Source: Clostridia bacterium
Lineage (GTDB): Bacteria > Bacillota > Clostridia > Christensenellales > Aristaeellaceae
Assembly (NCBI GenBank): GCA_017429695.1
Contig: JAFROK010000041.1
Span: 1 to 64,000, forward strand
Direction: 5' to 3'
Length of the DNA stretch: 64,000 bases
Shown in pieces: positions 6,983-31,622 of this stretch. The position numbers and the translations under genes are program-made. Numbering within the stretch: the stretch's first letter is position 1; each line of letters opens with the position of its first letter. The notes below the pieces were generated by a model. It had not been told where the DNA came from and searched no databases. It worked only from the letters and a program-made list of their open reading frames with translations.

Positions 6983-7022
6983 CGATATCTTACCCGCTTC
7001 CATAGATTTATATTATCTTTTG

Positions 7023-8273: not shown

Positions 8274-9075
8274 TTTTTTGTGTCCTTTTTTTTACGTATG
8301 GGCTGCGGTTCTTTCCTTCAATTGCTGTATTTAGAATCAAGCAAAAGATAATAAATGATAAGATATTTAAAATAATGGTGATATTTTGTCTGGTGTGACT
8401 ATCTTTGAAGGGATATATCCGCAGTAAGGAAGCCTCTCCCTGATTGCTGATCGTTTCTGTTTTTCCATTTTCTACTGTCATATCAAAAGCGCTTTCCCAT
8501 ACAGTGAAAAAACTGTCAGGATCTTTTCTCGCCATGATTGTCAGTACCGTATTTGGTGTTGAGGAAGCCAACGTTGTCCAGGATTCTCCTGTAATTCCTT
8601 GTGTATATACCCAATTTACTTCGCTGTTGGATTGTTTCTTGTATTCCTTTTGAAACAAATTAAATATCTCTTTGGATATATATTCCCTGCATAATACAAC
8701 ATTCTGCGATATTCCGTCATTATGATCAGTAATTCTGATTGTTATCTCTCCTTCAGGAAGAATAGCGTCTGCAAATGCTTCAATAGCATCATATAAGAGG
8801 AAACATAAAACAGCTGCCAAAAAGATAATCATCAATTTCTGCGCTATTGTTTTCTTCGCTTTATATCGTTCTCCTGATTCTTCCAAATTTTCTGTATGGA
8901 TCGCAATTTCCGGATCAATCATTTCTTGCTGTACTTTGTTTTTTTCTGTCTGTTCTTCTGTTCTTTCAACTGATAGATTATCTGTCTGAATGGCTTCTTC
9001 TTTTTTCTCAAAATGTTTCTTTTGCAACCTGGGAATTGCTTTTTCTTCTTTCTCTTCGCATCGCCGTTTACTCAT
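8257..9075 (-). CDS. Two-TM membrane protein with an extracytoplasmic domain, function unknown
   Basis: 272 residues. A highly charged Lys/Glu-rich cytoplasmic N-terminus of about 80 residues is followed by a membrane segment (MIIFLAAVLCFLLYDAI), an outer domain of about 130 residues, a second membrane segment and a basic tail. The outer domain resembles the N-terminal outer domain of the acyltransferase at 20,277-22,304 in length, predicted strand pattern and a few aligned residues (a conserved NVVL/EVWI start, then a FxxxWxxxF-type stretch). Overlaps neighbours on both sides (17 and 8 bases). I do not recognise a family. Confidence 0.6.
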   Translation of the reverse strand: MSKRRCEEKEEKAIPRLQKKHFEKKEEAIQTDNLSVERTEEQTEKNKVQQEMIDPEIAIHTENLEESGERYKAKKTIAQKLMIIFLAAVLCFLLYDAIEAFADAILPEGEITIRITDHNDGISQNVVLCREYISKEIFNLFQKEYKKQSNSEVNWVYTQGITGESWTTLASSTPNTVLTIMARKDPDSFFTVWESAFDMTVENGKTETISNQGEASLLRIYPFKDSHTRQNITIILNILSFIIFCLILNTAIEGKNRSPYVKKRTQKNATAE

Positions 9076-9829
9076 ATTCTGACCTCCGGATCTTAGCTTC
9101 TTTGTTTATTATATGGATACATACCAGCTCCGTCGGATTACCAATTCTTGGAATTGGCAGCGAATTGCTCAGGCCTCTGCTGACAATCAGTTTATGCTCG
9201 TAGAATCCACCGGAATAACGAGGCCAGATTCTTCTTTGTCCTGGAACAAGAAGACCATATCCGAATATGGAGATCTGTCCTCCATGGGTGTGCCCAGATA
9301 GGATCAGGTCAATGTCCTGTTTTTGGGTATATAGCCGATAATTTTCCGGATGATGGTCAATCAGGATTTTATATCCATCTAGCTTTGAAAAATCCTGAAG
9401 CCATGCTGTTTCCGTTTCCACTTTCTCTTTTGCGTGGAGCCCGTACTTTTGGTTTCTGAGAACCATGGCAGATGTGAGTCCGCCGACGAAAATGTGAGGG
9501 TGGATCTCGGTCCATGTGTTATCAAGGACTATTGTTCCCAGTGCTTTCATTTTTTGAATGTTTTGATCTGTCAGAACTTCATCGTTGTTTCCGTATGCGA
9601 AGTAAGTCGGAGCAGTTTCTATGCATGTTTTCAGAAGTAATTCGGTCGTGTCGGAGAAGGGTCGGTGCTCGTCGACCAAGTCCCCCGCAATAATGATCGT
9701 ATCTGGTTTACACTCTTTGAGGGCAGTATAAAAAAAGTGCTCCATAGGAAAACCATGTATGTCTGCCAGAAGGCAAATTGTCATTTGAATTTTCTTGTCC
9801 GTCTGGACATGATAGTGTTTGATGATCAT
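9068..9829 (-). CDS. Metallophosphoesterase (YkuE/YaeI-like)
   Basis: 253 residues of a calcineurin-like phosphoesterase with all metal motifs: ADIHG (near residue 22), GDLVD, GNNDE, DHHPE and SGHTHGGQ. Homologues such as B. subtilis YkuE act on membrane-associated or wall substrates or on UDP-sugars lipids, but the specificity here is not set by sequence. No clear signal peptide, so probably cytoplasmic or peripheral. It overlaps the previous glycosyltransferase by 4 bases and the next membrane protein by 8, so it is part of the locus and may hydrolyse a phosphodiester in the polymer or its lipid carrier. Confidence 0.85.
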   Translation of the reverse strand: MIIKHYHVQTDKKIQMTICLLADIHGFPMEHFFYTALKECKPDTIIIAGDLVDEHRPFSDTTELLLKTCIETAPTYFAYGNNDEVLTDQNIQKMKALGTIVLDNTWTEIHPHIFVGGLTSAMVLRNQKYGLHAKEKVETETAWLQDFSKLDGYKILIDHHPENYRLYTQKQDIDLILSGHTHGGQISIFGYGLLVPGQRRIWPRYSGGFYEHKLIVSRGLSNSLPIPRIGNPTELVCIHIINKEAKIRRSEYE

Positions 9830-11049
9830 GCTCCGAGTTCCTTTTTTGCCTTCTCTCCCTGAAGTTTCTCCCCCATTATTCTGGGAATCATTTGGATTGT
9901 TTTGAATCTGTTCTGTTTGATAAACCCACTTCCGCGGAACCAGATATTTGCCAATTTAATGCCGATCAGGGGAAGCCTTCTGAGTTTAATTTTCTGGTTG
10001 CTACCTTTACTCAGGCATTCTTCCTGCGCTTCCAGGAGTTTCTCTGTCACATGATCCAGGCTGAATTGTTGGAGACATATATCCCAAGCCATTTCCCGAT
10101 GTGCTTCCCTGGCAGCATTGTCTTCAATCTCAGTACAGATTGCTTCCATCCACGCTTCCGGTGTATTTTTGCAAAACCGACCGACTGTTTCCCTCTGTGG
10201 AATGGATAAATAGGGAGACACATCCGAGTAGATGCCGGCAATCGCCGAGCTTCCATACTCAATAAACTTATTATAATGTTTACATGCATGAAAGGGGGTA
10301 TCCGGCATTGGTGCAAGACCAATATCCCAGTTCAGCTCATTAAGCTTCTGCCTGTATTTCAGGTAATTGGCTTCATAAGGAATGCACACCGCATCAACTT
10401 CTTTGGCAAATGAAGGAATCGCACCGTAGAATTGTAGACTGATTCTCTCTTTATATTTTGCTTTGACCTGTTTCAATGTTTGAGAAAGCATGGCATCCAG
10501 GTCATTGCTCCGGTCAAGGGAACCGGCAAAGCCGATTTTGATGGTCTCCGCTTCTTGATGTGGGGTATATGTGCCTGGCAGGAAGGCTGCTGACTGAAAC
10601 AGGATTCCCGGTCTTTGTACTGTCGTGTATTTTTGAAGCAGGATCGGAGATGGTGTCAGGATTGCGCCGCTCAGTTCGATGCATGCCCGGATATGCTTTT
10701 TGATGTCTGCCCGTCCGTAATAGTCTGAGCATTTGATCTCCTGTGGGACATTGGGCAGGTCATCGTCTATATAATAGACCGTCCGGTCACCGGCCGCCTT
10801 CATCCGCTCAGCCAGTTTCTGTTCGTACCAGCTGTCAAACCTGCCCAGATAGATGATGTCCGCCCATTCCAGATCACTGTTCCGAAGTTTCATCTCCTGA
10901 ATGCATTTATACTCAATCTTCTTCGCCTTGGCCAAATGATCAAAAAGCAGATGGATGCAGTAGATTGTCGGGATCATTGCCCTGTAAACAAACAAAACAT
11001 GGCTTAGATCTGCCGATAGAGTGTTTTTGTGTTCCAACTGCATAGCCAA
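9826..11049 (-). CDS. GT-B (GT4-like) glycosyltransferase
   Basis: 407 residues. The N-terminal half lacks strong motifs. The C-terminal half has a nucleotide-sugar site: IKIGFAGSLDRSNDL, DIGLAPMPDTPFHACKHYNKFIEYG and GIYSDVSPY, the usual GT4 Glu-rich acceptor/donor segment. It is paralogous to 14,048-15,817, which shares the IGLAP...NKxxEYG...GIYS series. The last 60 residues are basic and amphipathic (LIGIKLANIWF, then many Lys/Arg), suggesting membrane attachment. Overlaps the metallophosphoesterase by 4 bases (ATGA). Confidence 0.8.
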   Translation of the reverse strand: MAMQLEHKNTLSADLSHVLFVYRAMIPTIYCIHLLFDHLAKAKKIEYKCIQEMKLRNSDLEWADIIYLGRFDSWYEQKLAERMKAAGDRTVYYIDDDLPNVPQEIKCSDYYGRADIKKHIRACIELSGAILTPSPILLQKYTTVQRPGILFQSAAFLPGTYTPHQEAETIKIGFAGSLDRSNDLDAMLSQTLKQVKAKYKERISLQFYGAIPSFAKEVDAVCIPYEANYLKYRQKLNELNWDIGLAPMPDTPFHACKHYNKFIEYGSSAIAGIYSDVSPYLSIPQRETVGRFCKNTPEAWMEAICTEIEDNAAREAHREMAWDICLQQFSLDHVTEKLLEAQEECLSKGSNQKIKLRRLPLIGIKLANIWFRGSGFIKQNRFKTIQMIPRIMGEKLQGEKAKKELGA

Positions 11050-11990: not shown

Positions 11991-12845
11991 TCAGCCTGTT
12001 AACCGACCCACACGGCTACCAAGAACTTTGGCTGCACAGTTCCGATAGAAACGTAATAGGTCTGAATACTTTTTTTCCGCAAGCAGGCTTTTCTGTACCT
12101 GCCTGACCAGGTTCATTCCCTCTTTTACTTCGGTCTGCTCTCCAAACCGGCTGCTGTATGTCTTCAGAAACCAGCCGATTTTTTTATTCCTGGAATATTC
12201 CTGACGGAATGTATGATTGTGGGAATGAATGACCCTGGCTTCTGCACAGTAGGCAAGCTCATAGCCGGCATGTAGAAAATCCGCAGCGATTAACATGTCT
12301 TCATTGGTTTTGATCGGGTTTTCAAATCCTCCGACAGCCTGGTAAGCTTCGCGTTTGTATGCTGCGCAGACATCCGAGAGGAGAAAACTCCTGATTCCAA
12401 GCTCCGGAATGTCCTTTGGGGACCATTGCCGGCTCTTTTCTGGATAACGAAATGCCCGGATCTTTTTTTCGTATTCCCACGCATCTGCCCTCGGAATCTG
12501 CCTGGCGGTCACCGCGGCAACCTTCTCCGGTTCCAGCGCCTTCAGTAGCCGTTGCATACATGTGCTGTCCGCCGGCAGTGCGTCCTGCGTCATCATGACG
12601 AAAAGCGGGTTTTCACATGCCTGTATCGCCAGATTCCTGGTTCCGCCATGATCAAACTGATCGCGTCTGATCTGTATCACACGGACATTGGTGTGTTTTT
12701 CCGCTATAGAAACAGTAGAATCCTCCGACTGAGAATCAATAATAATGATCTCAGCCGGAGGATTGGACTGGGTTTGCAGTGCTTTAATCAGAGCAGGTAT
12801 TTCTTTTTCTGCATTCAGCGTCGGAATAATAACCGAATATTTCAT
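11991..12845 (-). CDS. GT2 glycosyltransferase, rhamnosyltransferase (RfbF/WbbL-like)
   Basis: 284 residues. YSVIIPTLNAE, IIDSQSEDST and the hallmark FDHGGTRNLA of rhamnosyltransferase-type GT2 enzymes are all present, then MMTQDALP as the metal motif and FxxPxKTNEDM. The family uses dTDP-L-rhamnose, which fits rmlA/B/C nearby, although no rmlD is present in this window. Starts inside the end of the upstream aminotransferase gene (4-base overlap). Confidence 0.85.
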   Translation of the reverse strand: MKYSVIIPTLNAEKEIPALIKALQTQSNPPAEIIIIDSQSEDSTVSIAEKHTNVRVIQIRRDQFDHGGTRNLAIQACENPLFVMMTQDALPADSTCMQRLLKALEPEKVAAVTARQIPRADAWEYEKKIRAFRYPEKSRQWSPKDIPELGIRSFLLSDVCAAYKREAYQAVGGFENPIKTNEDMLIAADFLHAGYELAYCAEARVIHSHNHTFRQEYSRNKKIGWFLKTYSSRFGEQTEVKEGMNLVRQVQKSLLAEKKYSDLLRFYRNCAAKVLGSRVGRLTG

Positions 12846-13975
12846 TTAACTACTTCATTCACGGTTTTGCATATTGTCACTACGTCTTCTTCTGTTACAC
12901 CCAGGTGCAGGGGGAGCGTCAGGATATGTTCAGAGAGCTCATGCGCCTTCGGCGTCTTGCCCATCTGGTCTTTATACATCCTGTATTCAGCGTTATCCCG
13001 GTAATGAACGCCGCAGTAGATCTCCTGTTCAGCCAATTTGCCCATCACCAGCTCACGGTCCGGAACCGCAATCTCGAAAATATGATAGGAGCATTCATCC
13101 TTATAATTCGCATCGATGATCTTGATCTTCGGATTGTCCTTCAGCAGTTCCTCATATTTCCGGACCAGTTTCCGGCGGTATTCATTGTCCTCATCCAGGT
13201 ATTTCAGCTGAACCAGGCCGATTGCAGCCATGATGGAGTTGCCGTGATTTTTGTAGCCGAGGTAATCCACGTCATACATCCATTTATAGGTGCCGTTGGA
13301 AGAGCTGCGGGCATAAGTATCTTTATTAATTCCCAGCCAGGAAAGCTTCCTGACGATTGCATCATACTGATCATCCGCAAAGCAGATCATGCCGCTGTCA
13401 GCCGTGGGCAGGTTTTTCACAGCCTGGAAGGAATAGACCGTCACATCCACACCGTTCAGTGTTCCGGGGAAGATGCCGTTCATCCGGGTGCCGGACATAT
13501 GAGCGGCGTCCAGGATCAACTTCAGATTGTGCTTTTTGCAAATTGAAATGATCTTCTCCAGCTGGCCGATGCGTCCGCCGTAGCCAACAAACATCACGGC
13601 ACGAGTCTTATCCGTGATCTTCTTTTCTACGTCTTCGGGATCCAGGCAGAGATAGTCATCGACATCCGCGAATATAGCCTTCAGATTGGAGCGAAGAATT
13701 GCGTGGTTCGTGGAAACAAAGGTAATCGGTGTTGAGATAATCTCATCGCCTGGCTGCCATCCGTTCTCACGGCGCAGGATTTCGACTGCCATTTCCAGAC
13801 CTACTGTGTTGGAATTGATGTAATGCGCATTCTTGTGACCGGTATACTTTTTCCATGCCTCTTCAAACTCAACCGTTTTAAATCCGAGTCCGGTCCAGCC
13901 TTTTTCCAGGCATTCACGGATCTCCGCAAGACATTCATCCACATGAAATTTGGGTTTCAGAACTTGAATAGCCAT
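12842..13975 (-). CDS. DegT/DnrJ/EryC1/StrS family sugar aminotransferase
   Basis: 377 residues, a PLP aminotransferase of the sugar family but distinct from WecE. Motifs: GWTGLGFKTVEFEEAW, INSNTVGLEMA, ISTPITFVSTNHA, LILDAAHMSGT, and the PLP lysine in YSFQAVKNLPTADSG. Closest in pattern to enzymes making 3- or 4-amino sugars such as perosamine synthase or FdtB/QdtB-like proteins; the exact substrate is not readable. It follows a clear promoter at 14,007-14,035 and has an AGAAAGGGGAATT ribosome site, so it may begin a sub-operon. Confidence 0.85.
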   Translation of the reverse strand: MAIQVLKPKFHVDECLAEIRECLEKGWTGLGFKTVEFEEAWKKYTGHKNAHYINSNTVGLEMAVEILRRENGWQPGDEIISTPITFVSTNHAILRSNLKAIFADVDDYLCLDPEDVEKKITDKTRAVMFVGYGGRIGQLEKIISICKKHNLKLILDAAHMSGTRMNGIFPGTLNGVDVTVYSFQAVKNLPTADSGMICFADDQYDAIVRKLSWLGINKDTYARSSSNGTYKWMYDVDYLGYKNHGNSIMAAIGLVQLKYLDEDNEYRRKLVRKYEELLKDNPKIKIIDANYKDECSYHIFEIAVPDRELVMGKLAEQEIYCGVHYRDNAEYRMYKDQMGKTPKAHELSEHILTLPLHLGVTEEDVVTICKTVNEVVK

Positions 13976-16633: not shown

Positions 16634-17422
16634 TTACAGACGGTACACAAAATCCCGCTCATGCTTGTAGAAAACAGCCAGGCCGATCAAGAATATGCCA
16701 AATGCACATGCAACGGCAATTGCAATATTCAATCCTGACGGAAACACGCCGTAATAAATGGGGGATCGGAACATATCCACGAGATAAAAACCGGGGTTCA
16801 GTTTGAAGAAGATCTGCAGATTTTCCGGAATATTCTCAATCGGATACAGGATTGGCGTAAGATAATACCATGCGTTCATCACAACGTTTGTGATATAGCG
16901 CATATCCCGGAAATACACATTTGCTGCCGATACAAGGAGCGACATACCAAGCGTCCACAGGAAAATCAACAGGAATGCAACCGGTAGGAATACAAGCGCT
17001 ATTGTTAATTTCGCGCCCAGAATAAACATAAAGAAAGACAGTGCAACCATGGAAAAAAGCATATTGATAAACTGGGCACATACTGTGGAAAGCGGGAATA
17101 CGATCTTCGGAAGATAGATTTTTTTTATGAATCCTTCGTTGTTAATAATTGATACTCCGCAAAAATCCACAGTAAGTCCGAAAAAGTTCCATGGCAGCAT
17201 TGCTGCGTACAGGAAAACGACAAAATCCTGCAGTCTGAACCGCATAATCGTTCCGAATACAACAGAGCTAACAATCATTGTTGCCATGGGGTTCAACAAA
17301 GACCAGAAAAAGCCCAGAACGCTCCGTTTGTATTTAATCGTCAATTCCTGATTAATAAAATTGGATAAAACATACCTGCTTTGTTTTATATCCGTAAACA
17401 GTTTTTTCAATATCCTAATCAT
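16634..17422 (-). CDS. wzm: ABC-2 type permease, polysaccharide export (Wzm/TagG-like)
   Basis: 262 residues with six membrane segments. The N-terminal KRSVLGFFWSLLNPM is the family signature before the first helix; VYFRDMRYITNVVMNAWYYLTPI and the end near NPGFYLVDMFRSPI are also typical. It pairs with the ATPase whose coding region follows directly. Together they form an ABC-dependent exporter for a polyprenyl-linked glycan. Confidence 0.9.
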   Translation of the reverse strand: MIRILKKLFTDIKQSRYVLSNFINQELTIKYKRSVLGFFWSLLNPMATMIVSSVVFGTIMRFRLQDFVVFLYAAMLPWNFFGLTVDFCGVSIINNEGFIKKIYLPKIVFPLSTVCAQFINMLFSMVALSFFMFILGAKLTIALVFLPVAFLLIFLWTLGMSLLVSAANVYFRDMRYITNVVMNAWYYLTPILYPIENIPENLQIFFKLNPGFYLVDMFRSPIYYGVFPSGLNIAIAVACAFGIFLIGLAVFYKHERDFVYRL

Positions 17423-17465: not shown

Positions 17466-17690
17466 TTACAAAAGCTGAAGAAAATCCCCTATCTTTTCAA
17501 TTTTCACCTCATTGATCTTTTCATCAGGAATGACAACATCAAATGCATCACTCATTTCAGCGATGATTTGCACAATGGATAGTGAATCAAATGTTTCGAT
17601 ATCTTCTCTTTTGCTGTCAAGTGTAAGCTCGTCTTTTTCTACATCCAGGATATCAGCAGCAATCTCCAGCAGTTTTTCTTCGCGATTCAT
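17466..17690 (-). CDS. Acyl carrier protein
   Basis: 74 residues, acidic, four-helix ACP fold. The phosphopantetheine site is Ser36 in FDSLSIVQII. It overlaps the VOC gene by 4 bases (ATGA) and belongs to the four-gene cassette with VOC, FkbH and GNAT. In such a setting it is not a fatty-acid ACP but a dedicated carrier for a small acyl group, most likely glyceryl made by FkbH. Confidence 0.9.
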   Translation of the reverse strand: MNREEKLLEIAADILDVEKDELTLDSKREDIETFDSLSIVQIIAEMSDAFDVVIPDEKINEVKIEKIGDFLQLL

Positions 17691-18082
17691 TTTCTTTCCT
17701 CCAATACTTCAATTAGTCCTATTTTTGTGTGATACATAAAAACAACCTTCCGGTTGTCCAATGCCGGAGCCTTTTCAGGTGGGTCTGTGATTACGAAATG
17801 CTTTGTTTTCAGTCCGTCTATTGCCTTCTCCAGGTCGCGAACTTCATAACATATATGATAAGGACCGATTCCATTCTTCTTCAGCAATCCCGCCACGGTT
17901 GAATCTTCTGATGCAGACTCGATCAGTTCTACTCTTTCGGTTCCATTCAATAAAAAGCAGATATTGATCTTTCTGTATGGATCATAGATTGTTTCCTGTT
18001 CAATATGGTATCCGATACTTTCAAACATGCTGACAGACGGATCCATCTTTTTCACAAGATAACCGACATGGTGTACTTTCAC
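17687..18082 (-). CDS. VOC (glyoxalase/methylmalonyl-CoA epimerase-like) protein
   Basis: 131 residues, one VOC domain. HHVGYLV at residue 4 begins the first beta-alpha-beta-beta-beta unit; VELIE and GPYHICYEV carry a Glu and His of the expected metal site, and GLIEVLEE gives the last Glu. The family covers epimerases, isomerases and dioxygenases. Between ACP and FkbH, with 4-base overlaps on both sides, it probably acts on the ACP-bound acyl group, for instance epimerising its alpha carbon. That is inference. Confidence 0.75.
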   Translation of the reverse strand: MKVHHVGYLVKKMDPSVSMFESIGYHIEQETIYDPYRKINICFLLNGTERVELIESASEDSTVAGLLKKNGIGPYHICYEVRDLEKAIDGLKTKHFVITDPPEKAPALDNRKVVFMYHTKIGLIEVLEERK

Positions 18083-19716
18083 GATCCAATCACTTCCCCG
18101 ACAAAGATTTGGCCCGTTTCCTCTCCGGAAATCAGTTTATTATATTCTTTTTTGCCTTCCAATTCCACAAAATTCGTCTGAATATATCCTGCCTGTTCAT
18201 ATAAAGTTTCCACAGGCATATTCTTTGGCCCTTTACAGTATAATGCGTTTATGGAGGTATATCCTTCCTTGGCCAGCGTTTTTTCTATGTCATTGAGTAT
18301 CCCGTATTCAATATTCCTTCCCATGACGCGACAGCTCATGATGAAGTTTTCTATGACCGGTGCCTGACCGATGTGAACAAACGCTTCCGCACACAGACCA
18401 TGGTTCGCGAATCGGTCCTCCACGTTGTAAAGGAATATTCTCCACTCATCGGAAGAAAGCATCTCCTCAACTTCGTTTTGCGTATATCGGACTACAGTGG
18501 TATTGAATTGGTTGGTTTTCTGTACCAGCTGAACGACCCGTTCCAAATGCTCTGCCGGATTCTGGCGTGTTACTTTAATCTGGAGCCCTTTCAGGAAAGA
18601 GGAGAAATCCGCCGCATGTGTTCTTGCCTCTTCAATTTCATGCATCGCCTGGTACTGTTTTGTTTTCTCCCGGTCTTCCATTGTGATTTCGTTCCGCTGG
18701 AACCAGTTTTCAAGAATTATTCGCCCGAATCTGGGAAGCTCTTCAGGCATCGCCGGGAAATCAGGCACTGTCACATCCGGCAGAAACTCCTTGATTTCCT
18801 GCCGTTCCAAAGGATTATCGTCAATAAAGACAAAAGAATTCAGTCCGACATTCATTTCTTTTGCTAGTTCTTTGATATTGGCTGCTTTGCTTTGCCAGTT
18901 GATCCTGTATGCAGAAATATCCTGTTTATGAATCAGCATGTGCGGATGCTTATCAATAATCTCCCAGGCATCAGCTTCGTTGTTCTTTGATACAATCGTT
19001 AATGCCGCGCCGCAATCTTTCATGTACAGCAGGACAGATTGAAAGTCTTTATATGCCTTGCCGATACGGCTGTCTGCGAGTTTGATTCCCTGCAGTCCTT
19101 CCTCGCCGGCCACCCCGCCCCAAAGGGTATTGTCCAGATCCAGGGCAATGACTTTTTTTATCTTGCCGGCAGATACAGAAGCGATATGGAGGATCTCCTG
19201 ACAAATTCTTTCAATGCCTGCTTTTGAGTAGCGAATACTTCCCAGATTCCATGCCTTATCCGAATAGAATTCGGTTTCTCCCAGATCCGTTACACAACGA
19301 TGCAGTGGAAACACATATCCGTTTTTATGCTGATCAACAAACTGATATAGGTTTTGATTCCATATCAGTGCAGCCCGCCGCGGAATGCTGGTCCCTTTAT
19401 AGTCTCCATCATAGCTGATATAATAATCCGCGTCAGAAATATAATATCGAATGCCTGGTTGCATAGCATTCTCAATATCACTGAAAAAACCTTTAATTCG
19501 CTCTTCGTAATCAGCTTTGTCCTGAATATATTCGCGGATATCCATAAGGATTATGACGATATCTGGATTCCCTGTAACTACGTTTGATACCGGATTAAGC
19601 AAGGCTTCCAATACATTGCCGTACCCGACATTTTCTATGCATGGTACACCCTTGGAAACCTTTCGGATCACAGGGTCACAGTTGGTGTTTGATAATATCG
19701 CAATCATCCCGGTCAC
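18079..19716 (-). CDS. FkbH-like HAD-IIIC phosphatase/glyceryltransferase
   Basis: 545 residues. The HAD core lies near residues 190-340 with ALDLDNTLWGG (nucleophile Asp), TIVSKNN and FIDDNPLERQEI. The C-terminal part (VQLVQKTNQFNTT, then a GNAT-like fold) is standard for FkbH. Known FkbH proteins of polyketide and tetronate pathways take 1,3-bisphosphoglycerate, load the glyceryl group on an ACP and remove the phosphate, giving glyceryl-S-ACP. Here the ACP and a GNAT are in the same overlapping cassette. The N-terminal 180 residues are a further domain common to stand-alone FkbH proteins. Confidence 0.88.
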   Translation of the reverse strand: MTGMIAILSNTNCDPVIRKVSKGVPCIENVGYGNVLEALLNPVSNVVTGNPDIVIILMDIREYIQDKADYEERIKGFFSDIENAMQPGIRYYISDADYYISYDGDYKGTSIPRRAALIWNQNLYQFVDQHKNGYVFPLHRCVTDLGETEFYSDKAWNLGSIRYSKAGIERICQEILHIASVSAGKIKKVIALDLDNTLWGGVAGEEGLQGIKLADSRIGKAYKDFQSVLLYMKDCGAALTIVSKNNEADAWEIIDKHPHMLIHKQDISAYRINWQSKAANIKELAKEMNVGLNSFVFIDDNPLERQEIKEFLPDVTVPDFPAMPEELPRFGRIILENWFQRNEITMEDREKTKQYQAMHEIEEARTHAADFSSFLKGLQIKVTRQNPAEHLERVVQLVQKTNQFNTTVVRYTQNEVEEMLSSDEWRIFLYNVEDRFANHGLCAEAFVHIGQAPVIENFIMSCRVMGRNIEYGILNDIEKTLAKEGYTSINALYCKGPKNMPVETLYEQAGYIQTNFVELEGKKEYNKLISGEETGQIFVGEVIGS

Positions 19717-20249
19717 CCTTTCATTCCAATCAGTTTATGAATGGACTCCTTTTTCTTTGAATACAAGTCCGGAGTAAGCGCGTATTGTGCCGCCGTCCAG
19801 CCATCCATCGGAACTTTTGCAACAAACTCAGCGCCAAATTTTGTCCAGAATCGGATAATGCGATCGTTGCGTTCATCATTGTTCATAATAATGCGTGTAA
19901 ATCCCAACGAAAAAATATGCTCTATCAGCAAAACTGCTGCTTCCACGTTCTCAAAAGCGTTTCCATAAGAGATATATCTTCCGAGTTCACAGGTCTTGCC
20001 AACTACATCATAATAAGAAAGCGTTCCTATCGGTTCATTACTTGTATTCTCAATAATGTAGAAGTAATCTCCTTCTTTTTCCCTTTGCTTTTTAATCCAG
20101 GCGGTTTGTCCTTCAACTGTCCCACCCAATCTGGGAATAAATGCCGTCAACTTCTCATCATTTCGAATGTTGAGTGTAAAAAGTGCATCTTCTGCCTCAA
20201 CAGGACGCAATTGTCCCCTGTTGCCTTTAAGGATCGGTCCTACTGCCAT
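19713..20249 (-). CDS. GNAT family N-acyltransferase (RimL/RimJ-like)
   Basis: 178 residues. LRPVEAEDA starts the GNAT fold, YFYIIENTSNEPIGTLSYY and LGRYIS cover the central strands, and NNDERNDRIIRFWTKFGAE is the C-terminal acceptor/CoA region. AAGGAG lies 7 bases before the ATG. It overlaps fkbH by 4 bases. WecD, which acetylates dTDP-Fuc4N, is also a GNAT. Here the acyl donor may be the neighbouring ACP instead of CoA, transferring glyceryl to the WecE amino sugar. Acetyl-CoA remains possible. Confidence 0.75.
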   Translation of the reverse strand: MAVGPILKGNRGQLRPVEAEDALFTLNIRNDEKLTAFIPRLGGTVEGQTAWIKKQREKEGDYFYIIENTSNEPIGTLSYYDVVGKTCELGRYISYGNAFENVEAAVLLIEHIFSLGFTRIIMNNDERNDRIIRFWTKFGAEFVAKVPMDGWTAAQYALTPDLYSKKKESIHKLIGMKG

Positions 20250-20276: not shown

Positions 20277-22304
20277 TTAGTAAATTTTCCAATCTTGAGG
20301 ATTTTTCGATACATCGTTCCTATCATTCTTTTTTTCTATGCCTTTTTGCATAAAGATACTCTGAAAGCACTTGGAGCTAATTGAATGAATTGGTATGGCA
20401 ATCATAGAAGTCACTACAAATTCAACAACTAGTACAACAGGAAAAATAGCTTCTTTACGAAGAGGAGTGAGATTGCTTCCCATCCAATTGCTTATAAAAT
20501 CCCAGCTATATCCTGCAATTAAGACTGAATGTAACAAGAATATTTCCAAAGTGCAACTTGATATTTTCCGGACAATCTTCTTCCATAGTTCAGAAACTTT
20601 TGAAATGTTAATTATCATTATAGAAAAGATTACTGTAATGCAAAACGTTGGAATAATGTAATATGTGTTTTCATAATTTGTATAGGTATTCCAAAAAAAC
20701 TCTTTATTGATTAAATCCGTACTATAAAAATGACAATACACTGTTTCAAGGAAAACCAACACAATTAAAATGGCAACGCCCTTCCTTGGGGATATTTTTA
20801 TTTCATATTCACGCAAGAATGAGCCAACAAAATAATAAGCTATTGGTGCCAAGCAAACCCAATATCTTGTAAATATATTCCCTAAAATTGATTGACCTAT
20901 TGTAAGAAATACTGTACCTAAAATTAACAGCATTTTCTTTTTCATTGTATCTGCCGCAGAATAAATCATATTCAGTGCAGGAATTAATAGATACAATCCA
21001 AAAAACATAGCCATATATCCATTATCATATATTGAGACCGAACGGAGGATTGATGTTATTGAAAGGTCTGCTCCATATTTAATTTTCATCGCAATCTGGC
21101 CCATGAAAAAGACAATAAAATATGTGACCAAATACCTGAACCAATTTCTGAAGTAATCTTTTGAGTACTTTTTTTTACTCATCAAATAGCCAGTAGACAG
21201 TATAAAAATTGGAACACAACTCAGCATAACGACATATATTGCAGTTAATACTACCATATCAAGGTTTTGCGAAGGTCGCTCATAGTATCCAATATAAAAA
21301 TATTCATGTATACCCATTACAAAAAGTGCGCCGAAGCATTTTAAAATGTCTATCCCAACACTTCTTTGCCCGGATTGCTCATTTCTTTTTGTTGTGTGAA
21401 TATTCTTATAAAGTTTACCAGATGAGATTAAACTCAAGAAACAAATATGTAGTATTATAAATATTATTAGATATATGATAAAGCAATAAAGTGCATATGC
21501 TCCATTAGATACATTTAATCCAATAAAACCCAAAATAGAATAGAACAAATCATTAACAAACCTGAATGCTGTGCTGTTGCAAAATTCAAAAGATGGAAGT
21601 GTTTTAGCTAAAGCGATTACTACAGGAAAAAGACAAGAACAGCAGAAGAAAGCGATGATTGCAGCACATATGCTTCGGATCGAAAACAATTTATTTGTTC
21701 TTCTGTTAATTAGGATAATGCTTATAATTCCAACAATAGATATAATCGCAAATGTAATAAGTACTGTAATGATATAATCCTTTGTGTCCGGTTGATTGAC
21801 TAATGGTAGCTTATATGTTTCCCTTTGTTCGGATTCGGAGCTGAACAAATCCAATATATTATCATAGATAACCGTATCACCTTGAAGTTCTTGAATATGG
21901 ACCATTCCGGAAAACCCTTGTTTCCAAAATGTAAAAGAAACTGGCTTATTGGATGCGCATGAAAATTGTAATACACTACCCGCCCCGGCGACATTCACAA
22001 TGACATCATTATTATATCCATAATCAGTTGCTTTTCTAAACTCAAAACCAGTTGATTGAATGGCTTGCTGATAAATATTTGATAATTCTTCTTCTCCATT
22101 AATACTTGCTTTTTCAATCCAAACTTCATGATTCGGTATGGCGTTCGGATTGTTTTCTTCCATTACTTCAAGAGATAATAATAATTGTGATGAAACATTA
22201 CTATCAATAAATTTAGTTGTTCCCAGACTGATAACCAAAGAAACAAAGAGAATAAGCATTATCCAAGCGGGTTTAATTGTTTTTGCTTTGTTTGGATTGT
22301 CCAT
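20277..22304 (-). CDS. Acyltransferase 3 with N-terminal TM-ectodomain-TM extension
   Basis: 675 residues. Residues 10-30 form a membrane anchor, residues about 35-175 an outer domain, then two or three further helices to about residue 300. The acyltransferase 3 core starts near residue 318 (SVGIDILKCFGALFVMGIHEYF, quoted in part as the catalytic His region) and has about ten helices ending with SCTLEIFLLHSV. The N-terminal part is not usual for the family and is similar in layout to the separate membrane protein at 8,257-9,075. Likely O-acylates the polysaccharide. Codon use is as AT-rich as the rest of the locus. Confidence 0.8.
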   Translation of the reverse strand: MDNPNKAKTIKPAWIMLILFVSLVISLGTTKFIDSNVSSQLLLSLEVMEENNPNAIPNHEVWIEKASINGEEELSNIYQQAIQSTGFEFRKATDYGYNNDVIVNVAGAGSVLQFSCASNKPVSFTFWKQGFSGMVHIQELQGDTVIYDNILDLFSSESEQRETYKLPLVNQPDTKDYIITVLITFAIISIVGIISIILINRRTNKLFSIRSICAAIIAFFCCSCLFPVVIALAKTLPSFEFCNSTAFRFVNDLFYSILGFIGLNVSNGAYALYCFIIYLIIFIILHICFLSLISSGKLYKNIHTTKRNEQSGQRSVGIDILKCFGALFVMGIHEYFYIGYYERPSQNLDMVVLTAIYVVMLSCVPIFILSTGYLMSKKKYSKDYFRNWFRYLVTYFIVFFMGQIAMKIKYGADLSITSILRSVSIYDNGYMAMFFGLYLLIPALNMIYSAADTMKKKMLLILGTVFLTIGQSILGNIFTRYWVCLAPIAYYFVGSFLREYEIKISPRKGVAILIVLVFLETVYCHFYSTDLINKEFFWNTYTNYENTYYIIPTFCITVIFSIMIINISKVSELWKKIVRKISSCTLEIFLLHSVLIAGYSWDFISNWMGSNLTPLRKEAIFPVVLVVEFVVTSMIAIPIHSISSKCFQSIFMQKGIEKKNDRNDVSKNPQDWKIY

Positions 22305-22349: not shown

Positions 22350-23369
22350 TTATCTGTTCCCATACATTTCCTGATAGTACTTCTGATACTCACCCGAGAT
22401 GATCTCTTCCCACCAGTCCCGGTTCTCCAGGTACCATTTGATTGTCTTCTTGATGCCGTCCGCGAATTTCGTCTCCGGCAGCCAGCCCAGCTCGTTGTGG
22501 ATCTTCGTCGGATCGATGGCGTAGCGCAGGTCATGGCCCTTCCGGTCGGTTACGTAGGTGATCAGATCCTCGCTCTTGCCCAGTTCCTTAATGATCAGCT
22601 TCACGATGTCGATGTTCGCCATCTCATTGTGGCCGCCCACGTTGTAGACTTCCCCGATCCGTCCCTTCCGGACGATCAGGTCGATGGCCTTGCAGTGGTC
22701 CTCCACATACAGCCAGTCCCGGACATTCTTTCCCTCGCCATATACTGGCAGAGGTTTATCGTTCAGACAGTTAGCGATCATCAGCGGGATCAGCTTCTCC
22801 GGGAAGTGATAGGGGCCGTAGTTGTTACTGCAGCGGCTGATTGTTACCGGCAAGCCGTAGGTCCGGTAATAGGCCATCACCAGCAGATCCGCTCCCGCCT
22901 TGCTGGAAGAATACGGGGAAGAGGTATGGATCGGCGTCATCTCGGTGAAGAACAGGTCCGGCCGGTCCAGCGGCAGGTCGCCGTACACTTCGTCCGTGCT
23001 GACCTGATGGTAACGGACGTTTCCGAATTTCCGGGCTGCATCCATCATCGTGGCAGTACCAATGATATTGGTCTGCAGGAAGATGCCAGGATTCTCAATA
23101 CTGCGGTCCACGTGGCGTTCCGCCGCAAAGTTGATGACTGCGTCCGGTTTTTCCTCCTCAAATAGCGCGAAGATTCCATCCCGGTCACAGATGTCCAGCT
23201 TACAGAACCGGAAGTTCGGGTTATCCATAACGGGTTTCAGCGTGGAAAGGTTCCCGGCATAGGTCAGTTTGTCAACACAAACCACCCGATCTTCGGGATG
23301 CTCCTTCAGGTGGTAATGGATAAAGTTGCCTCCAATGAATCCGGCGCCGCCTGTTACGATAATCGTCAT
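22350..23369 (-). CDS. rmlB: dTDP-glucose 4,6-dehydratase (copy 1)
   Basis: 339 residues. TGGAGFIGGNF at residue 6 binds NAD, STDEVYGDLPL holds the catalytic Thr-Asp-Glu and YSSSKAGAD the Tyr-Lys pair. It converts dTDP-glucose to dTDP-4-keto-6-deoxyglucose, the branch point to rhamnose and to WecE-type amino sugars. A second, very similar copy lies on the other strand at 40,489-41,508. GC content and codon use are higher than in the neighbouring acyltransferase. Confidence 0.95.
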   Translation of the reverse strand: MTIIVTGGAGFIGGNFIHYHLKEHPEDRVVCVDKLTYAGNLSTLKPVMDNPNFRFCKLDICDRDGIFALFEEEKPDAVINFAAERHVDRSIENPGIFLQTNIIGTATMMDAARKFGNVRYHQVSTDEVYGDLPLDRPDLFFTEMTPIHTSSPYSSSKAGADLLVMAYYRTYGLPVTISRCSNNYGPYHFPEKLIPLMIANCLNDKPLPVYGEGKNVRDWLYVEDHCKAIDLIVRKGRIGEVYNVGGHNEMANIDIVKLIIKELGKSEDLITYVTDRKGHDLRYAIDPTKIHNELGWLPETKFADGIKKTIKWYLENRDWWEEIISGEYQKYYQEMYGNR

Positions 23370-24006: not shown

Positions 24007-24891
24007 TTAGTATTGAATTTTGCCTTCTGCGACAGCCTTGAGATGGGCTCCATAGGGACTCTTTCCATAACGTTCTGCTGATTCGATCAGTTTTTCTTTT
24101 GTGATCCAACCATTCTTGAACGCGATTTCTTCCGGAGCAGAAATCACGATACTCTGCCGCTTTTGGATCATCCGGACGAAATCTGCCGCATCCACCAGAG
24201 AATCCATTGTGCCTGTATCCAGCCAGGCAAATCCGCGGCCCAGCAGCTGGACGTTCAGTTTTTCCTGTTTCAGGTACATATCATTCAGGGTAGTAATCTC
24301 CAGTTCGCCCCGGGCGCTAGGTTTCACCTGATGAGCCTGGGCAGAAACACCTCTGGGATAAAAATATAGACCGGTAATACAGTAATTGCTCTTCGGGTTC
24401 TTTGGCTTTTCTTCCACGGAGAGAACTTTGCCGTTCTCGTCAAATTCAACTATGCCAAAGCGTTCCGGATCGTTCACATAGTATCCAAAGATTGTAGCAT
24501 GGTTTTCTTCCGTATTCTTCGCGGCAGAGCGAAGAATCTTGCCAAATCCGTTTCCATAGAAGATGTTATCTCCGAGCACCATTGCGCAGGAATCATCTCC
24601 GATGAATTCCTCGCCCAGCAGAAACGCCTGCGCCAGACCGTCAGGGGAGGGCTGAACTTTGTATTGCAGATGTAAGCCCAGTGCTTCGCCATCTCCGAGC
24701 AGTGCTTCGAAACGAGGCGTATCAGTAGGCGTGGAGATGATCAGGATATCCCGGATCCCGGCGAGCATGAGCGTACTCAGGGGATAGTAGATCATCGGCT
24801 TATCATAAACGGGGAGAAGTTGCTTGGATGTTACCATGGTCAACGGATAGAGCCGGGTGCCGGCACCACCGGCAAGAACGATTCCTTTCAT
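24007..24891 (-). CDS. rmlA: Glucose-1-phosphate thymidylyltransferase
   Basis: 294 residues. [17 protein letters not shown] is the nucleotide-binding loop, [17 protein letters not shown] the sugar-phosphate contact, VLGDNIFYG the metal site, and [12 protein letters not shown] the C-terminal signature. It makes dTDP-glucose. First gene of the leftward rmlACB group. An inverted repeat at 24,925-24,957 sits just upstream. Confidence 0.95.
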
Positions 24892-27802: not shown

Positions 27803-29191
27803 TCATGATTCTGCCGTTTTATTTGCTATTAGATAGTTGTTAATTTCGATGATCATCGATTTGATATATTCTTTATATTGATCCTTTATGTCACCATTTT
27901 CATTTGCTATTCCGCTTTTTGCTGGTATATTTCTTCCCCTTTTTTCTCGAATATCTGCTTCCGGAATTGTCACAACATGATAGTCTGGGAATTCACTTTT
28001 GATCTCATCGGCATCTTTCTGTTTGTCTCCATCAAATATTGCCACAATTCTACTATATCCTAAATCTTTGAACAAAGAGATGAAAAATTTCATCTTAGGC
28101 GCACCGCCGACTCCCCATCCAAAGAAGTTCCCTCTAAACTGTAATCCCAACTGGTTTGCAATTTTGTTATAAATGACAACATCTTCTTGTCCTTCGACAA
28201 GAATTAGACTATCGTCAAGGAAAAATACTTCGCTTGCATCGAGACCTAGAACATGTGGGTTGTTAATATCTTCCAGAATTCCTTTTATCCTTTTTTTGCT
28301 TTCAGTTCCCAGACAATAACAGTTCGTATTGCAATTTTCTTTGACTACACGAATCAACTGGGCTCCTGCAGCAATCGCCGACCAACTGATAAAATAGGGT
28401 GAATGGGTACAAATAATGATCTGCAATCTGTCAGTATATTCAAGAAAAAGATCCATAAGTTTCCTTTGCACAGCCGGATGAACTGAAAGCTCAGGTTCGT
28501 CAATAATTATTGTCGTTTTGTTTTCGGCATCAAACAGCGCTGCACAGATCGTAAAGATGCTCCAGATACCATCTCCGACACCTTCACTGCTATGTGTTAT
28601 TCCTTCTTGCGTATATTTAATATAATATTGTCCGTTATCTCTTTGTTCAATCGTCCATTTGAAATCGGTTCCTAATACTCTTTGAATTATAGAGTCAAAT
28701 TGTTCTCTTTTTTCCTCAATTTGATAAATACGTATTTCAAATTGTTCAAGTACGGTATCCCTCTGATTAGGCATGGCTTGTGTATGAGTAATGTAGTAAT
28801 CTTTATTTGCTATTGCTTTCCTAAATTCAAATGAAAAGCCTCTCCGTGATTGGACTACATAATACCGTAAAGCAAAGTTGCTGCTTTTCTTAGTTGAACT
28901 ACCACCTCCTTCAACGGAGTTAATGGAGTATTCCTTATCATTCTCATCTGTTATGCTAAGTTTTACAATTCCGTTTTTCAACAAATTTCGTCTTCCTTCA
29001 GAAAACGAAGGCGCTTTATCTGCATTGAATGCTCTAATAGATTCGACAATTGTTGTCTTGCCAGAATTGTTTGCTCCAGTAATGATATTCAGTCCGCTAC
29101 CTGGACGCTGATCATCTGGCAAGGAGAATTGTATTGTTCTTTCAATGCCAAATCCTCTGAACCCAGATATTGAAATCTTTTTTATCATCAT
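27803..29191 (-). CDS. OLD-family ATPase with TOPRIM nuclease domain
   Basis: 462 residues. Walker A GANNSGKTT (39-47), an ABC-type signature SSEGVGDGIWS (201-211), Walker B IIIDEPELSVHP (228-239) and a CTHSPYF H-loop (261-267). The C-terminal TOPRIM domain shows LILVEGQEDVV (Glu334) and AIFDGDKQKDADE (Asp388, Asp390), the metal-binding set of OLD nucleases. Class 1 OLD and GajA proteins cut DNA and act against phage. No UvrD-like GajB gene is adjacent, so Gabija is not supported. Start ATG 29191 or 29188. The family assignment is firm, the defence role is likely. Confidence 0.85.
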   Translation of the reverse strand: MMIKKISISGFRGFGIERTIQFSLPDDQRPGSGLNIITGANNSGKTTIVESIRAFNADKAPSFSEGRRNLLKNGIVKLSITDENDKEYSINSVEGGGSSTKKSSNFALRYYVVQSRRGFSFEFRKAIANKDYYITHTQAMPNQRDTVLEQFEIRIYQIEEKREQFDSIIQRVLGTDFKWTIEQRDNGQYYIKYTQEGITHSSEGVGDGIWSIFTICAALFDAENKTTIIIDEPELSVHPAVQRKLMDLFLEYTDRLQIIICTHSPYFISWSAIAAGAQLIRVVKENCNTNCYCLGTESKKRIKGILEDINNPHVLGLDASEVFFLDDSLILVEGQEDVVIYNKIANQLGLQFRGNFFGWGVGGAPKMKFFISLFKDLGYSRIVAIFDGDKQKDADEIKSEFPDYHVVTIPEADIREKRGRNIPAKSGIANENGDIKDQYKEYIKSMIIEINNYLIANKTAES

Positions 29192-29268
29192 AATATTTGC
29201 TCAATCACTTCTAGCTATTCGAAGATAATTCACAAATCTGAGGTCTGTTTCCATGAGAATTCATTCCT

Positions 29269-29847
29269 TCATGGGTCAAATTCCTGGATTCCGGTCAGTT
29301 TTGTGATGGCTGGTTTGTTCCAGCGGCTATTGGGCCAGCAAAAATATTTCGTTTTTCTCTTTTTGAAAATCCGCTGGGGCTCTATGGTGTTGTCATAGAT
29401 ATGTACAATATCGCAGACATCTATCAGTTCCGGAATGAGTTTCATTGCCTTTTCAAACCGGCTTCTGATCTTCTCCTCCGGTACGCCATGTCCTCCCTGC
29501 ATCTCCCTGGTTTTAACCCGGGCTATATTGATGTTAACGTCTGCCGTCAGGACATAGAAACATCTGATGAAATAGCCTTCCCGTTTTGCTTTGATCAGTA
29601 AATCCAGATTCCTTCTGGTTGATAAAACCGTTTCAAAAGTAAAGTCGGATTTGTTTCGGATGGCTTCTTCCCGTAATGCTTCCGCCCGCTGGGCTGCTTC
29701 AAGATCCGAGCAATGGTTTGCTCGTTTAATCTCATCTGCATTGATGTATATGCCGACTGTTTTAGCCAGTCTGGTGATCGTCGACTTCCCACTCCCGTTT
29801 GGGCCTGCGAAAACAATGATTTCAGGCAGAAGCTGTTTGTCCGACAT
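29269..29847 (-). CDS. Zeta-toxin-like P-loop kinase
   Basis: About 192 residues from MSDKQLL. Walker A AGPNGSGKST (14-23) is followed by YINADEIKR, then FTFETVLSTRRNLDLL, the usual zeta-toxin arrangement where the Asp and Glu contact the sugar substrate, then RVKTREMQGGHGVPEEKIRSR. Zeta toxins phosphorylate UDP-N-acetylglucosamine and block wall synthesis; related stand-alone proteins may have other roles. The ATG at 29847 overlaps the small upstream gene by 26 bases, which suggests a toxin-antitoxin order with the antitoxin first. An in-frame start at 29901 is possible but lies deep in the partner gene. Confidence 0.8.
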   Translation of the reverse strand: MSDKQLLPEIIVFAGPNGSGKSTITRLAKTVGIYINADEIKRANHCSDLEAAQRAEALREEAIRNKSDFTFETVLSTRRNLDLLIKAKREGYFIRCFYVLTADVNINIARVKTREMQGGHGVPEEKIRSRFEKAMKLIPELIDVCDIVHIYDNTIEPQRIFKKRKTKYFCWPNSRWNKPAITKLTGIQEFDP

Positions 29848-30028
29848 ATTCTTTCCTTCCATCCGGATATTCCAGATAGGCACGCCTGGTTGCTTCGTCA
29901 TAACGCGGCTGCGGAATTCCCTGGATTGTTCTTATCTCTTCGTCAATCCGGATCGCTTCCTTGAATCGGCGAGTAATCTCTTCGTCCGATAGTCCGCACG
30001 TATAGTCAAGCTGGTTTTTTTCCGGCAT
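29822..30028 (-). CDS. Small protein, probable antitoxin partner of zeta-like kinase
   Basis: 68 residues, charged, helical, with ITRRFKEAIRIDEEIR and then RYDEATRRAYLEYPDGRKEYV, a short beta-like end. A GAGGACGACCAAC ribosome site precedes the ATG. It is not similar in any way I can see to the epsilon antitoxin. The position, size and overlap with the kinase gene are the evidence for a paired function. Such small partners are widespread next to zeta-like kinases in Clostridia. Confidence 0.65.
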   Translation of the reverse strand: MPEKNQLDYTCGLSDEEITRRFKEAIRIDEEIRTIQGIPQPRYDEATRRAYLEYPDGRKEYVGQTASA

Positions 30029-30052
30029 GTTGGTCGTCCTCGTTTCCTTAAC

Positions 30053-30248
30053 TTATGAATCTTCCTGGAGAAAATCCGGCAGCCATGGCTCTAATTCCTG
30101 AATAAGTTTATATACTTTCGTGCAGGGATTGCATTTGGAAGGCAGTGTCCTGTCATCGTATTCTCTGTCTATTTTTTCTGCATTCCTGACAGCGTTTTTG
30201 AGACCGCCGTTCTGCTTTTCTTCTTTTATAGAGATCGTGTGAACCCAT
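30053..30248 (-). pseudogene. RloB/AbiLii-type gene reduced to its two ends
   Basis: The ATG at 30248 overlaps the stop region of the RloA-like gene (TGAACATGG), the usual coupling. It reads MGSHDLYKRRKAERRSQKR, a clear RloB N-terminus. The frame then closes. From about 30,190 to the TAA at 30053 a different frame reads NAVRNAEKIDREY, then SKCNPCTKVYKLIQELE, which matches how RloB proteins end. The 150 or so residues between, with the TOPRIM-like core, are gone. So an internal deletion with frameshift removed the second component of an RloAB/AbiL-like pair. Confidence 0.7.
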
Positions 30249-30250
30249 GT

Positions 30251-31462: not shown

Positions 31463-31526
31463 AGCCCGTTCCTCCTTGCCTTTATCTCTATAATATAATC
31501 TCAGCATTTTTATGGCGACAATGTGT

Positions 31527-31554
31527 ATAATACCACGTATTGTTGTAATGTCAA
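31527..31554 (-). promoter_or_regulatory. Promoter for the rloA-like operon
   Basis: On the minus strand TTGACA (31549-31554), a 16-base spacer and TATTAT (31527-31532). Transcription would begin near 31,519 and run leftward, giving a leader of about 57 bases to the GTG start at 31462. Consensus -35, near-consensus -10. Confidence 0.65.
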
Positions 31555-31593
31555 CTCATTTTGTGATATTTTCTCGTTTTTATGTTTTTTGTA

Positions 31594-31622
31594 TTGTTTT
31601 TTCTTGCTGTTTTGTGTATAAT
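31594..31622 (+). promoter_or_regulatory. Promoter for the DUF2188 gene
   Basis: TTGTTT (31594-31599), 17 bases and TATAAT (31617-31622), pointing rightward and divergent from the ATPase promoter. The leader to the ATG at 31777 would be about 148 bases and contains an imperfect inverted repeat. Confidence 0.55.

What the first reader, a model, noticed from the sequence alone, without database searches (positions are those of the whole stretch)
17466..20249. ACP-VOC-FkbH-GNAT cassette in a polysaccharide locus: probable glyceryl-type acylation from a carrier protein
Four genes overlap one another by 4 bases each, so they are made together. Known FkbH enzymes put a glyceryl group from 1,3-bisphosphoglycerate on an ACP. 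A VOC protein and a GNAT next to them would allow epimerisation and transfer to a sugar amine. The locus makes a WecE-type amino sugar, a natural acceptor. Acylation from a carrier protein instead of CoA would be an unusual way to decorate a surface glycan. The reaction order is inference.
Basis: partly seen in the sequence, partly recalled or inferred. Interest (0 to 1): 0.72.

Follow-up and report, generated by a model that had tools for sequence, protein, structure and literature searches.

The report
Glyceryl-adding cassette for a surface glycan
Four tightly packed genes very probably take a three-carbon acid from sugar breakdown, hold it on a small carrier protein, set its handedness and attach it to an amino sugar of the bacterium's surface coat; the parts are known one by one, but the assembly line is unproven and could explain sugars whose makers are still missing.

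Summary
On the minus strand GNAT, FkbH, VOC and ACP genes follow in that order with three 4-base overlaps, inside a 25-gene one-way polysaccharide run. FkbH, VOC and ACP keep their key residues; the GNAT lacks the usual CoA loop, as does its nearest solved relative.

(1) In three other genomes GNAT and VOC are one fused protein in a DegT-FkbH-ACP-[GNAT-VOC] row. (2) Of 37 fetched FkbH loci, 29 have an ACP and 12 a VOC (3 fused) close by; the 6 with a GNAT of this type all have a sugar aminotransferase, the 14 with an MBOAT none. (3) In a genome without an FkbH match, orthologues of this locus's aminotransferase and GNAT sit beside an ACP with another acyl supply. (4) The VOC groups with FkbH-linked VOCs and a solved 'glyoxalase-I', not with methylmalonyl-CoA epimerases.

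Against: none of the 9 loci with a separate VOC has this GNAT. Acyl group, epimerisation, donor and acceptor are unproven. A similar gene set is already tabulated for C. acetobutylicum. New variant of a known kind.

The parts
19713..20249 (-). GNAT, proposed acyltransferase to a nucleotide-sugar amine
   Evidence: PF13302 43.3 bits; nearest solved chain FdhC 5kta, 59.1 bits; fused to a VOC in L058, L075, L076; between DegT and ACP in L130
18079..19716 (-). FkbH-type HAD-IIIC protein, proposed loader of a C3 acid onto the ACP
   Evidence: TIGR01686 275.1 bits, cut-off 146.65; D193, D195, S243, K277, D299, D300, C462 invariant in 40 of 40 aligned rows; only copy found in its genome assembly
17687..18082 (-). 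VOC protein, proposed 2-hydroxyacyl-ACP epimerase
   Evidence: PF13669 57.3 bits; H/E/H/E at the metal-ligand positions (alignment; which positions bind metal is recalled); groups with FkbH-linked VOCs and PDB 2qh0
17466..17690 (-). acyl carrier protein with DSL phosphopantetheine site
   Evidence: PF00550 34.2 bits; FDSLS read
20277..22304 (-). membrane acyltransferase (Acyl_transf_3), 27 bases before the GNAT; possible second user of the acyl group
   Evidence: PF01757 56.8 bits; gap
12842..13975 (-). DegT-family sugar aminotransferase, likeliest maker of the amine acceptor
   Evidence: PF01041 264.2 bits; 56% identical orthologue directly before GNAT and ACP in L130; 60% orthologue about 3.8 kb after rmlA- and rmlB-like genes in L133
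5855..7003 (-). WecE (dTDP-4-amino-4,6-dideoxygalactose transaminase), alternative maker of the acceptor
   Evidence: NF008687 643 bits, cut-off 375; TIGR02379 638.7, cut-off 434.85
22350..23369 (-). RmlB, dTDP-glucose 4,6-dehydratase, precursor of the amino sugar
   Evidence: TIGR01181 491 bits, cut-off 365.1
24007..24891 (-). RmlA, glucose-1-phosphate thymidylyltransferase
   Evidence: TIGR01207 458.3 bits, cut-off 360.65
16634..17422 (-). ABC-2 type export permease (Wzm-like)
   Evidence: PF01061 50.9 bits
15855..16634 (-). ABC export ATPase (Wzt-like)
   Evidence: PF00005 72.6 bits; best NCBIfam model galactan Wzt/RfbE 200.6, under its cut-off of 400

Best explanation
The four genes are one carrier-protein acylation module for an amino sugar. 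Inferred steps: FkbH takes the glyceryl group from 1,3-bisphosphoglycerate, removes phosphate and leaves D-glyceryl-S-ACP; the metal-dependent VOC epimerises C2 of the ACP thioester (D to L) through an enediolate; the GNAT moves the acyl group to the amine of a dTDP-amino-6-deoxysugar made by RmlA, RmlB and the DegT enzyme at 13975-12842 (or the WecE at 7003-5855). Glycosyltransferases then build the sugar into a glycan exported by the Wzm/Wzt pair. Shown here: the genes, their family membership, conserved residues, and their recurrence as sets with carrier proteins and aminotransferases. Not shown: every reaction.
For: GNAT-VOC fusions in DegT-FkbH-ACP rows in 3 genomes of 2 families (Pfam run on one of the three, L058). 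Of 37 fetched FkbH loci, same strand: ACP within 1 kb in 29, VOC in 12 (9 separate within 1.5 kb, 3 fused), GNAT within 9 kb in 6, DegT in 11, MBOAT in 14; GNAT with DegT 6 of 6 against 5 of 31. Without an FkbH match, L130 keeps DegT (56%), GNAT (41%) and ACP together, with FabG-, FabH- and AMP-ligase-like genes. Nearest solved GNAT is FdhC, a dTDP-sugar N-acyltransferase (recalled). FkbH residues invariant. [quoted passage not shown] In L062 the best-scoring FkbH and its ACP adjoin two genes of the 2-hydroxyglutaryl-CoA dehydratase family and a BadF-type gene, fitting a 2-hydroxyacyl thioester. N-glyceroyl amino sugars exist (passages). No VOC was found in the 19 kb around FkbH in G306, while G403 of the same genus has it fused, as expected of an optional stereochemistry step.
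Against: No product structure. None of the 9 loci with a separate VOC has this GNAT; 5 of the 9 have an MBOAT and 3 a DegT, so FkbH-ACP-VOC does not always serve an amine. The nearest solved GNAT, FdhC, lacks the canonical CoA loop too and is recalled to use acyl-CoA, so the loss here does not show ACP use. FkbH-linked VOCs are not one clade: L064, L068, L013 and the fusions fall outside the well-supported set. Related genomes were counted separately in the Fisher tests, and the two GNATs of L063 were caught only by the iterated profile, not by direct comparison. L133 has the DegT orthologue with an ATP-grasp gene and no GNAT, ACP or FkbH match in 15 kb. FkbH is patchy: 10 of 150, 15 of 347 and 14 of 398 genomes, own included.
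Confidence: 0.58

Rival explanations
1. FkbH and ACP supply an O-acyl group that the membrane acyltransferase (22304-20277) puts on the glycan, while the GNAT is an ordinary acetyl-CoA N-acetyltransferase.
For: The acyltransferase lies 27 bases upstream; 14 of 37 FkbH loci have an MBOAT on the same strand, among them 5 of the 9 with a separate VOC; in L043 the MBOAT follows the VOC directly and in L069 it lies 1.1 kb before FkbH.
Against: The GNAT is fused to a VOC and packed with FkbH and ACP where no MBOAT was found; GNAT and ACP stay together in L130 without an FkbH match. The window's enzyme is Acyl_transf_3, not MBOAT.
Confidence: 0.17
2. The VOC works as a glyoxalase on the carrier protein: it isomerises a 2-oxoaldehyde hemithioacetal of holo-ACP to a 2-hydroxyacyl-ACP (lactyl or glyceryl), so it supplies acyl groups instead of epimerising them.
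For: Nearest solved chains are named lactoylglutathione lyase (2qh0) and glyoxalase-I (3hdp), 119.4 and 118.7 bits; 2qh0 falls in the same supported set as the window VOC (96/90). In the Paludibaculum stretch L117 a VOC overlaps an ACP and no FkbH was found in the 13 kb read.
Against: FkbH next door would already load the ACP; apart from L117, the VOCs seen beside an ACP came from loci chosen for FkbH, so the test is one-sided. Neighbours of most other VOC matches were not examined.
Confidence: 0.12
3. The glyceryl-ACP is further changed (chain extension, oxidation, dehydration, methylation) before transfer.
For: Related loci carry such genes: FabD-like, FabH, FabG and carboxyltransferase in L111; 2-hydroxyglutaryl-CoA dehydratase-family genes in L062.
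Against: No such gene was recognised among the 25 of the run, all scanned with Pfam or NCBIfam; but three of them (9826-11049, 8257-9075, 7023-8273) have no family, and the rest of the genome was not searched for such enzymes.
Confidence: 0.1

Closest known systems
FkbH/ACP glyceryl-ACP cassettes of polyketide pathways (FK520, tetronates, bafilomycin)
   Same: FkbH-like protein plus stand-alone ACP said to make glyceryl-ACP (passages of PMC7489565 and PMC3679948)
   Different: There the acyl group goes to dehydrogenases, an O-methyltransferase or a FabH-like enzyme; here the neighbours are a VOC, a GNAT and sugar genes
C. acetobutylicum CA_C2186-C2199 surface carbohydrate locus
   Same: Table lists a glyoxylase (C2192), N-acetyltransferase (C2197), ACP (C2198) and N-acetyltransferase + HAD phosphatase (C2199) (PMC4000134 section 10); that C2199 is FkbH-like is my inference
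   Different: The glyoxylase gene is separated from the others, and a DUF4910 protein and a sialic-acid-like synthase are present; the section read does not propose glyceryl or epimerisation
C. jejuni flagellin glycosylation locus
   Same: FkbH-domain gene cj1302 and 'epimerase' cj1301 in the locus (PMC7099621 passage); the strain makes a 2,3-di-O-methylglyceroyl amide on pseudaminic acid (PMC3068675 Discussion)
   Different: Acceptor is a nonulosonic acid and the group is methylated; the gene tied to it there by mutation is cj1295; no sequence of this locus was compared here
F. psychrophilum O-antigen wfpC-wfpG
   Same: ACP-borne acyl group proposed to be moved to an NDP-4-amino sugar (PMC6519341 passages)
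   Different: Fatty-acid-like chain building; PglD-type acyltransferase; no FkbH or VOC named in the passages seen
FdhC N-acyltransferase (PDB 5kta)
   Same: Nearest solved GNAT, 59.1 bits
   Different: Recalled to use 3-hydroxybutyryl-CoA on dTDP-Fuc3N

Membership tests
FkbH (TIGR01686) | score above curated cut-off | tested here: met
   275.1 against 146.65
FkbH (TIGR01686) | HAD motif residues and the conserved SCR cysteine (roles recalled) | tested here: met
   D193, D195, S243, K277, D299, D300, C462 in 40 of 40 rows; the synthase-embedded L072 left out
FkbH (TIGR01686) | transfers glyceryl from 1,3-bisphosphoglycerate to an ACP | not testable with these tools
   needs an assay
Acyl carrier protein | PP-binding domain with serine in a DSL motif | tested here: met
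   34.2 bits, cut-off 20.8; FDSLS; two ACPS-family matches over the cut-off in the genome
Methylmalonyl-CoA epimerase (TIGR03081) | score above curated cut-off | tested here: not met
   62.7 against 114.95; separate from 29 epimerase-like rows
VOC superfamily metal enzyme | H/E/H/E metal-ligand positions (recalled) | tested here: met
   read by eye from the alignment
Clostridial-type glyoxalase I | sequence kinship with PDB 2qh0 and 3hdp | tested here: met
   119.4 and 118.7 bits; same supported set as 2qh0
Clostridial-type glyoxalase I | glutathione hemithioacetal isomerase activity | not testable with these tools
   needs an assay
PseH N-acetyltransferase (TIGR03585) | score above curated cut-off | tested here: not met
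   20.9 against 93.1
WecE (TIGR02379), protein 5855-7003 | score above curated cut-off | tested here: met
   638.7 against 434.85
WecE (TIGR02379), protein 12842-13975 | score above curated cut-off | tested here: not met
   114.1 against 434.85
Glyceryl/methoxymalonyl polyketide cassette | FabH-like, dehydrogenase and O-methyltransferase genes or a polyketide synthase beside FkbH-ACP | tested here: not met
   none recognised among the 25 genes of the run

The most novel reading that the evidence does not exclude
FkbH, ACP, VOC and GNAT are a general, swappable pathway for N-glyceroyl sugars; the VOC is a 2-hydroxyacyl-ACP epimerase that sets D or L, and the solved 'glyoxalase-I' (2qh0/3hdp) is really a member of this glycan pathway. 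In MBOAT loci the same FkbH-ACP pair would feed a Dlt-like O-glyceryl esterification.
Probability: 0.33. Interest if true: 0.75.

Novelty: new variant of a known kind. Interest (0 to 1): 0.57.

Why it matters
[quoted passage not shown] forsythia, PMC6120980 passage). If true, this module names four concrete genes to test, shows how glycolysis could feed a surface modification without CoA, and would give a role to a group of VOC proteins that otherwise carry glyoxalase or epimerase labels.

Tried and rejected
Considered and rejected: methylmalonyl-CoA epimerase role for the VOC (fails TIGR03081; separate clade; only match to it in its 88%-complete genome at E 1e-6); polyketide or antibiotic cassette (no such neighbours recognised among 25 scanned genes); chance proximity (judged unlikely from recurrence; no formal chance model was run). 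Genomes of C. jejuni, C. acetobutylicum, T. forsythia and Pragia were not compared. That PDB 2qh0/3hdp comes from C. acetobutylicum and is CA_C2192 is recalled, not checked. The window's organism was not identified.

Full report
Observation. The four ORFs exist as described, on the minus strand, in the order GNAT, FkbH, VOC, ACP. Neighbours overlap by four bases three times, GTGA, GTGA and ATGA; the first overlap depends on a GTG start for FkbH, which also has an ATG at 19707. They lie in a run of 25 same-strand genes from 27392 to 1086 with no gap over 150 bases; its G+C is 0.415 against 0.542 for 30000-64000, which fits a locus that moves between genomes. All 25 were scanned with Pfam or NCBIfam; three (9826-11049, 8257-9075, 7023-8273) have no family.

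Parts. ACP: PP-binding domain and a DSL site. VOC: Glyoxalase_4 domain, below the methylmalonyl-CoA epimerase cut-off, with H/E/H/E at the metal-ligand positions (the positions are recalled). FkbH: no Pfam match at E 0.001 but well above the NCBIfam FkbH cut-off; D193, D195, S243, K277, D299, D300 and C462 are invariant in 40 of 40 aligned rows, the synthase-embedded L072 left out. It is the only copy found in its genome assembly, which is 88% complete. GNAT: Acetyltransf_3, nearest solved chain FdhC. At the place of the usual CoA loop [QR]xxGx[GA], 7 of the 8 GNATs aligned have no GxG; the eighth (L063_4936) keeps a GTG; three matches of the pattern lie elsewhere. The FdhC fragment lacks it too, so this says little about the donor.

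Is it a module? FkbH was sought in 150 family, 347 order and 398 phylum genomes (matches in 10, 15 and 14, own genome included). These gave 38 places outside the own genome; 37 were fetched with flanks (the second G607 place was not). On the same strand an ACP lies within 1 kb in 29 of 37, a separate VOC within 1.5 kb in 9, a fused GNAT-VOC in 3 more, a GNAT of this type within 9 kb in 6, a DegT in 11, an MBOAT in 14. Of the 8 without a near ACP, L072 is a synthase with its own PP-binding domains and L074 lies by a peptide/polyketide synthase with an ACP 1.2 kb off; L077 is cut at its downstream end, L078 has an ACP 1.8 kb off, and L049, L059, L060 and L070 showed none. All 6 GNAT loci have a DegT against 5 of the other 31 (Fisher p 0.0002), and none of the 14 MBOAT loci has one (p 0.002); related genomes are counted apart, so the p values are optimistic. 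Against the simple picture, none of the 9 loci with a separate VOC has this GNAT, 5 have an MBOAT and 3 a DegT.

Fusion. L058, L075 and L076 encode DegT-FkbH-ACP and then a 326-residue protein. Pfam, run on the L058 protein only, finds the GNAT domain at 13-142 and the glyoxalase domain at 202-312; the other two align over the same VOC part. L061, from the same genus as L075, has the same row with a GNAT that ends before the VOC part (65% identical over 1-195), and no VOC was found in its 19 kb. In the two families searched, 2 of 20 and 2 of 43 genomes have this protein at E 1e-15, G306 (source of L061) without the VOC part. An optional VOC fits a step that sets stereochemistry.

Reverse tests. 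With the VOC as query, 164 of 398 phylum genomes match at E 1e-6, own included. Apart from the own gene only G610 scores above 57 bits (121.7), directly beside FkbH and ACP; the weaker matches in G792 (48.8) and G517 (41.4) also lie beside FkbH. Neighbours of most other matches were not examined. With the GNAT as query at E 1e-10, 2 other genomes of 398 match: G663, which has FkbH, ACP and WecE (L062), and G740, which has no FkbH match. In G740 (L130) an orthologue of the window's DegT (56% identity), the GNAT (41%) and an ACP stand in a row, followed by FabG-like, Antibiotic_NAT, AMP-ligase, formyltransferase and FabH genes. So aminotransferase, GNAT and ACP stay together while the acyl supply changes; this is the best evidence that the ACP is the donor, and it is one locus. 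A further DegT orthologue (60%, G257) lies about 3.8 kb after rmlA- and rmlB-like genes, next to an ATP-grasp gene, without GNAT or ACP match; it ties the enzyme to dTDP sugars but shows that its product need not be acylated this way.

VOC kinship. In a 45-row tree the window VOC falls in a supported set of 10 (96/90) with 8 FkbH-linked VOCs and PDB 2qh0, named lactoylglutathione lyase (that it is from C. acetobutylicum is recalled). The 29 epimerase-like rows, human enzyme included, form another set (100/98). Three FkbH-linked VOCs (L064, L068, L013) and the fusions fall outside the first. The best plasmid match, from Paludibaculum, overlaps an ACP gene in a locus with exosortase and, on the other strand, DegT genes; no FkbH was found in the 13 kb read.

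Chemistry. [quoted passage not shown] Side evidence for 2-hydroxyacyl-ACP chemistry: the best-scoring FkbH (39%) and its ACP adjoin two genes of the 2-hydroxyglutaryl-CoA dehydratase family and a BadF-type gene (L062), and a same-genus locus adds chain-building genes (L111). N-glyceroyl amino sugars are real: Pragia fontium Qui2NAc4N (table), Qui4N in some polysaccharides and T. forsythia pseudaminic acid (passages), and a methylated form in C. jejuni (Discussion), whose locus holds an FkbH-domain gene (passage). In Maritalea a HAD-IIIC gene and a DUF4910 gene lie with one gene between them, near pseB and an N-acetylneuraminate synthase gene, much as in C. acetobutylicum.

Acceptor. RmlA and RmlB give dTDP-4-keto-6-deoxyglucose (established knowledge). 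Two aminotransferases could use it: the DegT at 13975-12842, tied to the GNAT by L130, and a true WecE at 7003-5855, tied to the GNAT by L062, where a WecE (518.3 bits, cut-off 375) lies 242 bases before it. I favour the first, weakly. RmlC here and two RmlD matches over the cut-off on other contigs suggest rhamnose as well.

Verdict. It is a new variant of carrier-protein glycan acylation. The VOC step and the GNAT-VOC fusion are the points I did not see in print in the ten searches made, none of which asked for VOC and FkbH together.

Noticed in passing
window 2047-7003: A second tailoring group behind WecE: NAD epimerase, ATP-grasp and an HMGL-like aldolase/synthase (537 aa). It may acylate another amino sugar by an ATP-grasp ligase; L062 and L133 carry related ATP-grasp genes.
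   Followed up: partly
L043, L045, L046, L048, L050-L057, L069, L071: FkbH-ACP with an MBOAT within 9 kb on the same strand (in L046 also a DHHW/AlgX-like protein): looks like a Dlt-type O-acylation system in which FkbH replaces the ligase.
   Followed up: partly
L111:4572-12556: Same-genus locus with FabD-like, FabH, two ACPs, FabG-like, FkbH, VOC, carboxyltransferase and DegT genes: perhaps a chain-extending version of the module.
   Followed up: partly
L062:5336-8175: Two genes of the 2-hydroxyglutaryl-CoA dehydratase family and a BadF-type gene directly after FkbH and ACP in a glycan locus.
   Followed up: no
window 27803-35548: Cluster beside the glycan locus: AAA protein with OLD-like TOPRIM, Zeta_toxin-family protein, AAA_21 ATPase, KAP NTPase; perhaps defence genes.
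   Followed up: no
window 7023-11049: Three proteins of the run (416, 272 and 407 aa) have no Pfam match; the first two have no NCBIfam match either.
   Followed up: no
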